Assembly: GCA_905478035.1 (NCBI GenBank)
Contig: CAJQGX010000035.1
Span: 1 to 39,141, forward strand
DNA: 39,141 nt
From: an uncultured SAR86 cluster bacterium
GTDB lineage: Bacteria; Pseudomonadota; Gammaproteobacteria; Magnimaribacterales; D2472
Reading direction: 5' to 3'
Position numbers and translations under genes: made by a program. Under the pieces are notes generated by a model. The model was not told the DNA's origin. It saw only the letters and a program-made list of their open reading frames with translations, and ran no database searches. Every line of letters begins with the position of its first letter. The first letter of the stretch is position 1. Positions 9,418-10,853 of the stretch are shown piece by piece.

Positions 9418-9427
9418 GTTCGTAAAT

Positions 9428-9455
9428 AAAAAACCCCCAAATAAATTTGGGGGTT
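9428..9455 (-). terminator. Rho-independent terminator, ends the structured RNA just before the EamA gene
   Basis: Reading the minus strand, a 10-bp perfect stem (AACCCCCAAA / TTTGGGGGTT) with loop TTTA is followed immediately by a run of T to 9428. The T run exists only in the minus direction. It is 10 bp upstream of the EamA start codon and so can only stop transcripts that begin upstream of that gene. Confidence 0.9.
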
Positions 9456-9640
9456 AGTAAAAAAATCTAGTCTTTTGAATTACATCAATTAACTAGCCAG
9501 AAACCTAAGATTTGCCCTGTGTCAAAAGGCAGATCCTCCGTTTCCTATTGTTTTATAAATACTAATAAGATCACCTCCTTTGTCAGGGTAATAATATGAT
9601 ATTTGAAAATCCCCTTAAAAAATTCTCAAATAAGACACCC
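9428..9640 (-). ncRNA. Candidate structured small RNA or attenuator leader (family not identified)
   Basis: The interval has a promoter-like TATAAT upstream, no convincing open frame, extensive base pairing and a strong terminator. On the minus strand, a closing helix pairs GTCTT (9636-9632) plus TTGA (9629-9626) with TCAA (9478-9475) plus AAGAC (9474-9470). Inside, an irregular rod pairs CCCTG (9588-9584) with CAGGG (9519-9515), AAAGG (9581-9577) with CCTTT (9529-9525), and GATC (9572-9569) with GATC (9535-9532). Between them is a large open bubble. The overall shape and length (about 170 nt before the terminator) resemble 6S RNA, but I see no conserved 6S sequence. An attenuator leader for EamA is the main alternative. 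Several unpaired GGA triplets also permit a CsrA-binding role. Confidence 0.5.
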
Positions 9641-9646
9641 ATATAA

Positions 9647-9695: not shown

Positions 9696-9884
9696 TTAAG
9701 AAAATAATTCGAGCTGCCTTGATGGAATAAGTAATGAAATATTGGGATTTGAATTTAAATTCTGATCCAGATACTTTTCAAGATCAACGAGATTACCTTT
9801 AAAATATTTATACGCGATAGTTTTTTTTGAAGAACTTATATCCACAGCTTCATTAAGTTCATTTATGATTAAATCTGTATGCAT
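9696..9884 (-). CDS. Small LexA-controlled protein with C-terminal clamp-binding-like motif
   Basis: I do not recognise a family for this 62-aa protein. It is soluble and charged, with no signal peptide or membrane segment, and probably forms short helices (LIINELNEAVD, NLVDLEKYLDQNL). Its last residues are SRQLELFS; QLELF (57-61) matches the QLxLF beta-sliding-clamp-binding consensus, and a flexible C-terminal tail is the usual place for that motif. A promoter with a LexA operator in the spacer ends 28 bp upstream of the ATG, and no other gene lies in front of it in that direction. The combination supports a real, DNA-damage-induced gene. Possible roles are modulating polymerase access to the clamp or a checkpoint; both are inference. 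There is no obvious Shine-Dalgarno. Confidence 0.68.
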   Translation of the reverse strand: MHTDLIINELNEAVDISSSKKTIAYKYFKGNLVDLEKYLDQNLNSNPNISLLIPSRQLELFS

Positions 9885-9911
9885 TGTTTTATTAAAGTTA
9901 TTAAAAACTAT

Positions 9912-9940
9912 AATATACTGTATATTTATACAGTATGCAA
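9912..9940 (-). promoter_or_regulatory. SOS promoter with LexA operator
   Basis: The 20-bp element TACTGTATATTTATACAGTA (9916-9935) contains CTGT-N8-ACAG, a full match to the gammaproteobacterial LexA consensus. On the minus strand it fills the spacer between a -35 TTGCAT (9940-9935) and a -10 TATATT (9917-9912) set 17 bp apart. Bound LexA would therefore block polymerase. The only gene it can serve on this strand begins at 9884. Confidence 0.85.
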
Positions 9941-9950
9941 TAATAAAAAA

Positions 9951-10532
9951 CTATTCTTTATTACTTACTAGAAGCCTATTGTTTCGTAATGCTGTAAATA
10001 AAGCAGATAGAAATAGAACAAGAACAATTGATCCAAGTACATCGCCAACAAAAAATCTTAGAATAACTACACCATCTATTAATACTCCAGCAAGCAAAGA
10101 GGTTATTACATTGGCTCCAATAGAATTAAATGCTGCTGATAAAACAATAATGAGTGCCAATGTTCTATAGTTGGTATAGTTAATCGGAGAAAAAATAGTT
10201 CCTTTGGTGTTTCTTCCAGACCATTGGACTAATTCACAAGCTGCAACAACTGCTAAAATTGATGCAATGCTTGCTACAGGCCAGACTTCAAAATAATACT
10301 GAGGATAAACTAAGACTGGTCCAGTAATTTCAGCAGCATAGAGAGCTGGAATAGATTTATAGCCAAAATAACAAATACCTAAAACTCTGGCACCATGTGG
10401 CAAATAAATAAGACTGCCAGACCATTCTATTTTATCAAGATTAACAAATGCTAGATAAGACCATATTGCATAAACCATCATAGTAAAACCATATATAGAA
10501 ATAGACATTAAGATCCAATTTTTCATATACAT
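9951..10532 (-). CDS. MASE1-like integral membrane protein without output domain
   Basis: The 193-aa protein has about five or six membrane segments. Two stretches, LPHGARVLGICYFGYKSIPA and FFVGDVLGSIVLVLFLSAL, resemble the conserved parts of MASE1 sensor domains, which normally precede GGDEF, EAL or histidine-kinase modules. Here the frame stops after the membrane part, so it may be a free-standing sensor or transporter. The start is ATG 10532, with a second ATG at 10526. It lies 33 bp after the winged-helix gene and is probably co-transcribed with it, which suggests that the regulator controls or reads this protein. Family assignment is from pattern only. Confidence 0.6.
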   Translation of the reverse strand: MYMKNWILMSISIYGFTMMVYAIWSYLAFVNLDKIEWSGSLIYLPHGARVLGICYFGYKSIPALYAAEITGPVLVYPQYYFEVWPVASIASILAVVAACELVQWSGRNTKGTIFSPINYTNYRTLALIIVLSAAFNSIGANVITSLLAGVLIDGVVILRFFVGDVLGSIVLVLFLSALFTALRNNRLLVSNKE

Positions 10533-10565
10533 GTTTTTGTATTTATTTGGTTAAATAAAGATTTA

Positions 10566-10853
10566 CTATAAAGAAAGGTCTAAGAAAAATTCTCTTTTAT
10601 CAAAACTTGATTGGCTAAGTTGCAACATATCATTTCTTTCAAGCTTTTTGATAGCTTTATAGACTGTTGATCTTGATAGACCAGAAGATTCAATAACATC
10701 AGAAATATTACAAACAGTATTTTGCATGTTAAGGTCATTGATTGTGAAGAAAACTTTTTTCTCAGTTAATGAGTAACCAGCAAGATTAATTTCATCTTCA
10801 ATACTTCTCAACATTTCTAATACGCTATACAACTCTTTTTTAAAATTTTTCAT
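10566..10853 (-). CDS. Winged-helix (MarR/TrmB-like) transcriptional regulator
   Basis: A 95-aa protein that is mostly one DNA-binding domain. A helix-turn-helix is readable in CNISDVIESSGLSRSTVYK, followed by AIKKLERNDMLQLSQSS and a wing DKREFFLDL, the pattern of MarR- or TrmB-like regulators. An N-terminal helix (ELYSVLEMLRSIEDEI) could mediate dimerisation. No ligand-binding domain is present. It precedes the MASE1-like gene on the same strand and may regulate that pair. The AT-rich 84 bp between it and tRNA-Ser shows no clear operator. Confidence 0.72.
   Translation of the reverse strand: MKNFKKELYSVLEMLRSIEDEINLAGYSLTEKKVFFTINDLNMQNTVCNISDVIESSGLSRSTVYKAIKKLERNDMLQLSQSSFDKREFFLDLSL

What the first reader, a model, noticed from the sequence alone, without database searches (positions are those of the whole stretch)
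9696..9940. SOS-controlled 62-aa protein with a C-terminal sliding-clamp motif
Seen: a promoter (-35 TTGCAT, -10 TATATT, 17-bp spacer) whose spacer is filled by a LexA operator with CTGT-N8-ACAG, followed by a single 62-codon frame ending SRQLELFS. Known: QLxLF at a flexible C-terminus is the beta-clamp-binding motif of polymerases, MutS and clamp regulators, and small LexA-regulated proteins such as SidA and DidA act as damage checkpoints. Inferred: a damage-induced peptide that occupies or recruits to the replication clamp. I recognise no family for it, so it may be undescribed.
Basis: partly seen in the sequence, partly recalled or inferred. Interest (0 to 1): 0.74.

Follow-up and report, generated by a model that had tools for sequence, protein, structure and literature searches.

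The report
SOS-controlled small sliding-clamp-tail protein family
A tiny gene in a SAR86 ocean bacterium sits under the DNA-damage (SOS) switch and makes a small protein whose tail looks built to grip the ring that holds the DNA-copying machinery, so it may pause or redirect DNA copying after damage; its function is untested.

Summary
Confirmed: window 9696-9884(-) encodes 62 aa under a perfect LexA-type operator in a SAR86-type genome. Relatives occur in 71 of 107 genomes of its family-level group f1, one broken. All 77 distinct relatives collected (69 f1, 8 f4) carry ACTGT-N8-ACAGT at the gene start. A clamp-motif tail (QLELFS, QLEFSF, QPELLH and kin) is in 67 of 69 f1 proteins, 0 of 8 f4 proteins and 0 of 391 background frames, and is the most constrained segment: pN/pS 0.01, helices 0.11, linker 0.27. 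In this genome the exact operator occurs three times: umuDC, recA, this gene. AlphaFold: three helices, loose linker, tail. No known family matched. Best reading: a LexA-controlled sliding-clamp ligand that changes polymerase access after damage. Conservation of operator and tail is shown; LexA binding, induction, clamp binding and effect are inferred. Against: f4 relatives lack the tail, some f1 genomes lack the gene, 25 of 67 tails are off-consensus. In passing: a candidate undescribed SAR86 structured RNA lies just downstream.

The parts
9696..9884 (-). 62-aa SOS-controlled protein, start ATG to stop
   Evidence: relatives in 71 of 107 f1 genomes, one of them broken
9699..9716 (-). C-terminal clamp-motif tail QLELFS (residues 57-62)
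   Evidence: Q57 in 64 of 64 and E59 in 61 of 64 aligned proteins; motif in 67 of 69 distinct f1 proteins
9750..9878 (-). predicted three-helix domain (residues 3-45) with conserved D15, A24, F28, Y38
   Evidence: AlphaFold models, column conservation
9917..9934 (.). LexA-type operator ACTGTATATTTATACAGT (palindrome)
   Evidence: the same exact 18-mer elsewhere in this genome only before umuDC and recA
9935..9940 (-). -35 hexamer TTGCAT
   Evidence: weak
9912..9917 (-). -10 hexamer TATATT
   Evidence: position conserved in 69 distinct relatives
9903..9905 (-). codon TTT in the place of the family's usual ATG start
   Evidence: alignment with L006

Best explanation
[quoted passage not shown] When RecA filaments trigger LexA cleavage, the protein accumulates from an mRNA with almost no leader, occupies clamp sites and so changes which polymerase or repair factor can use the clamp at damaged forks, most likely restraining the replicative polymerase while Pol V (umuDC, same operator) and repair act; the helical domain supplies a second contact. 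Shown: gene, operator, regulon context, conservation of operator and tail, selection on the tail, presence of DnaN. Inferred: LexA binding, induction, clamp binding. Least certain: direction of the effect and the partner of the helical domain. The confidence given is for 'SOS-controlled clamp ligand' in either direction; restraint alone I put at about 0.4, and the Pol V accessory rival lies inside the same reading.
For: Perfect operator at the gene start in all 77 distinct relatives, 98 loci. In G000 the exact 18-mer occurs three times: umuDC, recA, this gene; lexA has a site one mismatch away. In nine near-complete genomes of the order 29 strict sites exist, 3-4 per genome, and 27 of 29 lie before recA, umuD, lexA, this gene or another small gene. 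Eight f1 genomes without the gene have no such site in front of a copy of it; G028, G036 and G120 keep just the recA and umuD sites. Tail in 67 of 69 distinct f1 proteins, 0 of 391 background frames by the same pattern. pN/pS over 19 independent close pairs: tail 0.01 (1 nonsynonymous change), helices 0.11, linker 0.27. Published clamp motif QL[S/D]LF, typically at an extreme terminus, with conserved Gln and variable central residue (PMC3716654, PMC9690074, passages). DnaN of this genome aligns nearly end to end with solved bacterial clamps.
Against: No experiment. 0 of 8 f4 relatives pass the tail pattern although they keep core and operator. G065's copy ends before the tail and G007's is broken. 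25 of 67 tails are QPEL-type, off the QL consensus; a looser clamp pattern is met by 64 of 69 but also by 4 of 391 background frames. Gene presence does not track the Y-family polymerase: 64 of 92 f1 genomes with PF00817, 7 of 15 without (my count; many genomes incomplete). With up to 3 mismatches the operator search is not above its reversed control (20 and 24 against 32 and 34), so only exact or near-exact sites count. Models are modest (pLDDT 71.7 and 74.6) and no fold match is significant.
Confidence: 0.68

Rival explanations
1. Pol V accessory: the tail tethers to the clamp and the helical domain binds UmuD', UmuC or RecA, helping translesion synthesis rather than restraining replication.
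For: Shares its exact operator with umuDC; two conserved modules joined by a less constrained linker suit an adaptor.
Against: UmuC of this genome has its own clamp-like QYSLF (by eye); presence does not track PF00817.
Confidence: 0.3
2. SOS division inhibitor (SulA/SidA-like role): the helical domain, kept in f4 without the tail, is the active part and stops division; the clamp tail is an added localiser.
For: Small, LexA-type operator, f4 relatives lack the tail. Two f2 genomes have instead a small SOS-controlled one-helix membrane protein, the usual look of such inhibitors.
Against: No membrane helix (highest 19-residue hydropathy 0.17 in the window protein and 0.75 over all 77 distinct relatives, against 2.1-2.3 for the two f2 proteins); no SulA match; the tail is the most constrained segment in f1.
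Confidence: 0.15
3. The tail is a degradation signal for rapid removal after SOS, not a clamp ligand.
For: Hydrophobic or near-hydrophobic C-terminus in most members; SOS inhibitors are often short-lived (recalled, e.g. SulA and Lon).
Against: Gln and Glu are the conserved positions rather than the last residue; two members (L021, L026) run on after the motif.
Confidence: 0.08
4. Clamp-targeting toxin of a toxin-antitoxin pair, like SocB or RipA.
For: Clamp-cleft ligands are known as toxins (PMC9690074 and PMC12795458, passages).
Against: No conserved partner gene found beside it: the commonest neighbour is a downstream EamA-like transporter (60 of 67 loci; name by eye), with a terminator between them in the window; controlled by an SOS-type operator.
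Confidence: 0.07

Closest known systems
SocB of Caulobacter and RipA of pneumococcus (clamp-cleft toxins)
   Same: Act on the hydrophobic cleft of the sliding clamp (PMC9690074 and PMC12795458, passages)
   Different: Toxins of toxin-antitoxin pairs; the passages seen mention no LexA control of them. Here no conserved partner gene was found and there is an SOS-type operator. SocB and RipA sequences were not compared with this protein
SidA (SOS-induced) and DidA (SOS-independent) checkpoint proteins
   Same: Damage-induced regulators; DidA is described as small
   Different: They target FtsW/FtsN (PMC4211646, passages); this one is not a membrane protein by hydropathy and has a clamp-type tail
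UmuC and Pol II (clamp motif; SOS control recalled)
   Same: QLNLF / QLGLF clamp motifs (PMC3716654, passages)
   Different: They are polymerases; here the f1 proteins are mostly 62-84 aa with no recognised enzyme domain
Eukaryotic p21
   Same: Works-like comparison only: a protein that binds the clamp PCNA strongly through a motif and blocks other partners (PMC9690074, passages); its damage induction is recalled
   Different: No relation, different clamp and motif

Membership tests
LexA/SOS regulon | Consensus LexA-type operator at the promoter | tested here: met
   all 77 distinct relatives; promoter position
LexA/SOS regulon | LexA encoded in the genome, with the same type of operator at recA and umuDC | tested here: met
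LexA/SOS regulon | Induction by DNA damage, loss of control in lexA mutants | not testable with these tools
   needs transcript data or LexA binding assays
Beta-clamp-binding proteins (QL[S/D]LF type) | Motif with conserved Gln and hydrophobic residues, near a terminus | tested here: met
   67 of 69 distinct f1 proteins, 0 of 391 background frames; Gln in 64 of 64 aligned. 25 of the 67 are QPEL-type; 0 of 8 f4 proteins
Beta-clamp-binding proteins (QL[S/D]LF type) | Physical binding to DnaN | not testable with these tools
   no complex prediction offered; DnaN is encoded and aligns with solved clamps
Membrane-type SOS division inhibitors (SidA and the like) | Membrane-spanning helix | tested here: not met
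   highest 19-residue Kyte-Doolittle mean 0.17 (window) and 0.75 (all 77 distinct)
SulA | SulA Pfam domain | tested here: not met
   no SulA match among families shown for the window protein or 64 members (25 families shown)
SocB/RipA-type clamp toxins | Cognate antitoxin gene next door | tested here: inconclusive
   no conserved small partner evident among frames of 60 codons or more in 67 loci, best 14 clusters viewed; shorter partners not excluded
UBA / TS-N three-helix domains | Significant fold match | tested here: not met
   UBA chains only at E 3.3 and 7.1, none for the second model

The most novel reading that the evidence does not exclude
A bacterial works-like counterpart of p21: a LexA-controlled, clamp-occupying small protein that acts as a replication checkpoint, one of about four units (lexA, recA, umuDC, this gene) of a streamlined SOS regulon in one of the ocean's common bacterial groups.
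Probability: 0.35. Interest if true: 0.82.

Novelty: new variant of a known kind. Interest (0 to 1): 0.62.

Why it matters
If the tail binds DnaN, SAR86 controls replication after damage by loading the clamp with a small SOS-made ligand, a strategy known from eukaryotes and from clamp-targeting toxins but, in the paper searches made here, not seen described as a LexA-controlled step. The nine near-complete genomes examined hold only 3-4 strict SOS sites each; that f1 genomes spend one on this gene suggests it matters to bacteria of sunlit water (habitat recalled). Two purified proteins and one peptide are enough to test it.

Tried and rejected
Family libraries: nothing significant in Pfam, NCBIfam, PHROGs, PADLOC or PDB sequences; scattered hits of one to four members at E about 0.001-0.4 judged chance. 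Phage origin: none of 66 viral-contig candidates confirmed; no phage record matched a consensus-like query. Spread beyond SAR86: of 369 genomes of the class, five matched at E up to 0.02: the window's own, its f1 relative G021, and three weak ones; of these L258 was read and is chance (no operator), while L259 and L260 lie in frames of 560 and 513 codons and were not followed. One 'Flavobacteriales' locus (L234) looks like a misassigned SAR86 contig.

Rows dropped: of nine f4 genomes matched, G200 (inside a 588-codon frame), and three weak f2 matches (G164, G172, G177), not followed; weak hits in five f1 genomes (L095-L099) fetched and dropped, no operator; L031-L034, not matched by the profile; weak hits without a locus, not followed. 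UBA-like fold suspected by eye; fold searches did not support it. A dN/dS run with distant pairs (pN/pS 0.61 overall, tail 0.41, linker 0.90, helices 0.55) was set aside for synonymous saturation and replaced by pairs of at least 75% identity. L274 of G008 (operator without this gene) was read in six frames and holds no recognisable copy. For the downstream RNA, RNAalifold's own structure had no pair changed on both sides.

Full report
What is there. The window lies in a 1.26-Mb AT-rich genome, 88% complete (G000, contig C35). Of 46 loci of named genomes that carry the gene, 40 are labelled SAR86, 4 Gammaproteobacteria, 1 Proteobacteria and 1 Flavobacteriales. The 62-aa frame at 9696-9884(-) ends SRQLELFS. 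Its operator, 9917-9934, is the only ACTGT-N8-ACAGT in the window, with 0.01 expected. The exact 18-mer (either strand) occurs three times in the genome: before umuDC (C14:32221), recA (C39:47447) and this gene; lexA has a site one mismatch away. With up to 3 mismatches, matches (20 and 24) do not exceed the reversed control (32 and 34), so looser sites carry no weight.

Conservation of the gene. A protein search over 61 genomes found matches in 37 at E up to 1, many weak. A profile search found the gene in 71 of 107 genomes of the family-level group f1, and in 15 of 19 that are at least 90% complete and at most 5% contaminated; both counts include the broken G007 copy. An order-wide search of 203 genomes added short relatives in f4: nine genomes matched, eight kept. 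I collected 98 loci with 77 distinct proteins: 69 from f1, covering all 71 genomes (one broken, L100; one shortened, L101), and 8 from f4. All have a perfect ACTGT-N8-ACAGT at the head of the gene.

Promoter. In 69 distinct f1 sequences the -10 hexamer begins with the last base of the operator and averages 5.2 of 6 matches to TATAAT; the -35 is weaker (3 of 6 in 41 of 69, the window's included). In 60 of 69 the first ATG lies 10-15 nt after the operator, hence 5-10 nt after the -10; such mRNAs would have almost no leader (inference). The window copy is the outlier (32 nt), because its family start codon reads TTT.

Tail. Q57 is invariant in 64 aligned proteins and E59 present in 61, beside a variable linker. 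Q[LMP][EA][LFM] lies in the last 14 residues of 67 of 69 distinct f1 proteins; the exceptions are the broken L100 and the shortened L101. Tails: QPELLH 17, QLEFSF 15, QMEFSF 5, QLELL 5, QPELI 5, QLEFTF 4, QLAMF 3, QLELFS 3 and rarer ones. The same pattern occurs in 0 of 391 other frames of 150 codons or more and in 0 of 8 f4 proteins; a looser clamp pattern is met by 64 of 69, and by 4 of 391. In 19 independent close pairs pN/pS is 0.01 for the tail (one nonsynonymous change), 0.11 for the helices, 0.27 for the linker. The published motif is QL[S/D]LF with a conserved glutamine and a variable middle residue (PMC3716654, PMC9690074, passages). QPEL-type tails (25 of 67) depart from it and are the weaker part of the case.

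Structure. AlphaFold gives helices 3-12, 16-27 and 32-45 and a loose rest (pLDDT 71.7); a fuller relative gives the same layout (74.6). Fold searches found nothing significant. The core, about [ILV]AFxYFxxD, is shared with f4, whose 49-56-aa proteins have no passing tail; one ends QKDLF.

Regulon. In nine near-complete genomes of the order the strict WACTGT-N8-ACAGTW occurs 29 times, 3-4 each. 27 of 29 lie before recA, umuD, lexA, this gene or another small gene; G042:1031992 and G021:1169334 do not. Groups differ: the three f1 genomes and one of two f4 genomes have this gene; the two f2 genomes have an unrelated 61-62-aa one-helix membrane protein; the two f3 genomes and the other f4 genome have neither. 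Of eight f1 genomes without the gene, none has the operator in front of a copy: G028, G036, G120 and G019 keep recA and umuD sites, G002 these with two umuD, G020 and G005 only recA's; G008 has recA, umuD and two sites not assigned, one exact and without a copy of this gene beside it. Presence does not track PF00817: 64 of 92 with it, 7 of 15 without (my count).

Target. DnaN is encoded and aligns at residues 1-365 of 367 with solved clamps, among them the sequence of entries such as 2pol and 1ok7 (E. coli, recalled). UmuC carries its own clamp-like QYSLF (by eye).

Mechanism. Most likely LexA cleavage releases a burst of this protein, whose tail competes for clamp clefts and so restrains or redirects polymerase traffic. 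Shown: gene, operator, regulon, conservation, selection. Inferred: LexA binding, induction, clamp binding, outcome. I favour restraint over recruitment only slightly.

Known or new. Searches for SAR86 with LexA and SOS (0 papers), for clamp-binding motif with LexA, small protein and SOS (0) and wider ones showed no description; only open-licence papers were searched, and beyond passages of four papers I saw listings. Nearest by action are SocB and RipA; nearest by setting is SidA. It is filed as a new family, a new variant of the small damage-induced regulator kind.

RNA in passing. Just downstream, 63 of 69 f1 loci carry a conserved block. A model built from 34 of them hits 126 of 203 genomes of the order, one match each, in all four groups (f4 in one genome only, G193, where it also follows this gene). 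In G040, G037 (f2) and G041 (f3) it lies away from the strict SOS sites, and in f1 genomes G024 and G031 about 10 kb from this gene, so it is separate from it. A 5' hairpin drawn by me has 61 cells changed on both sides against 23 in shuffles, but the number of such pairs (8) is no more than in shuffles (7.4), and RNAalifold's own structure showed none; a possible GGGG/CCCU pseudoknot never varies and so says nothing. Rfam has no match at its cut-offs other than tRNAs.

Mended: the like-for-like background count (now), a hydropathy test added, dropped rows and results against the reading added.

Noticed in passing
window about 9427-9645 (-); model match 9483-9644: Candidate undescribed structured RNA with a -10-like box and an intrinsic terminator, one match per genome in 126 of 203 genomes of the order, GGA-rich, 5' hairpin with some covariation and a possible pseudoknot; no Rfam match at cut-off.
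   Followed up: partly
L190 site 2022 and L194 site 1995: Two f2 genomes (G040, G037) have a different small SOS-controlled gene, 61-62 aa with one hydrophobic helix, next to a DUF3604-like gene (name recalled); looks like a division inhibitor. No Pfam match over cut-off.
   Followed up: partly
L274 site 1501: In G008 an exact ACTGTATAAATATACAGT lies 37 nt before a 311-codon frame of unknown kind, a possible extra SOS gene.
   Followed up: partly
G002 and G100: Two Y-family polymerase (PF00817) matches each in two small genomes; in G002 both lie by a umuD with its own operator.
   Followed up: no
L234: Contig filed under Flavobacteriales carries this gene, its operator and SAR86-type neighbours: probably misassigned.
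   Followed up: partly
L100: G007 copy of the SOS gene is broken by stops and frame changes while operator and downstream RNA remain.
   Followed up: no
window 9951-10853 (-): Small HTH gene (TrmB/MarR-like) followed by a predicted membrane protein, upstream of the SOS gene on the same strand; a related membrane protein lies upstream in 41 of 67 loci.
   Followed up: no
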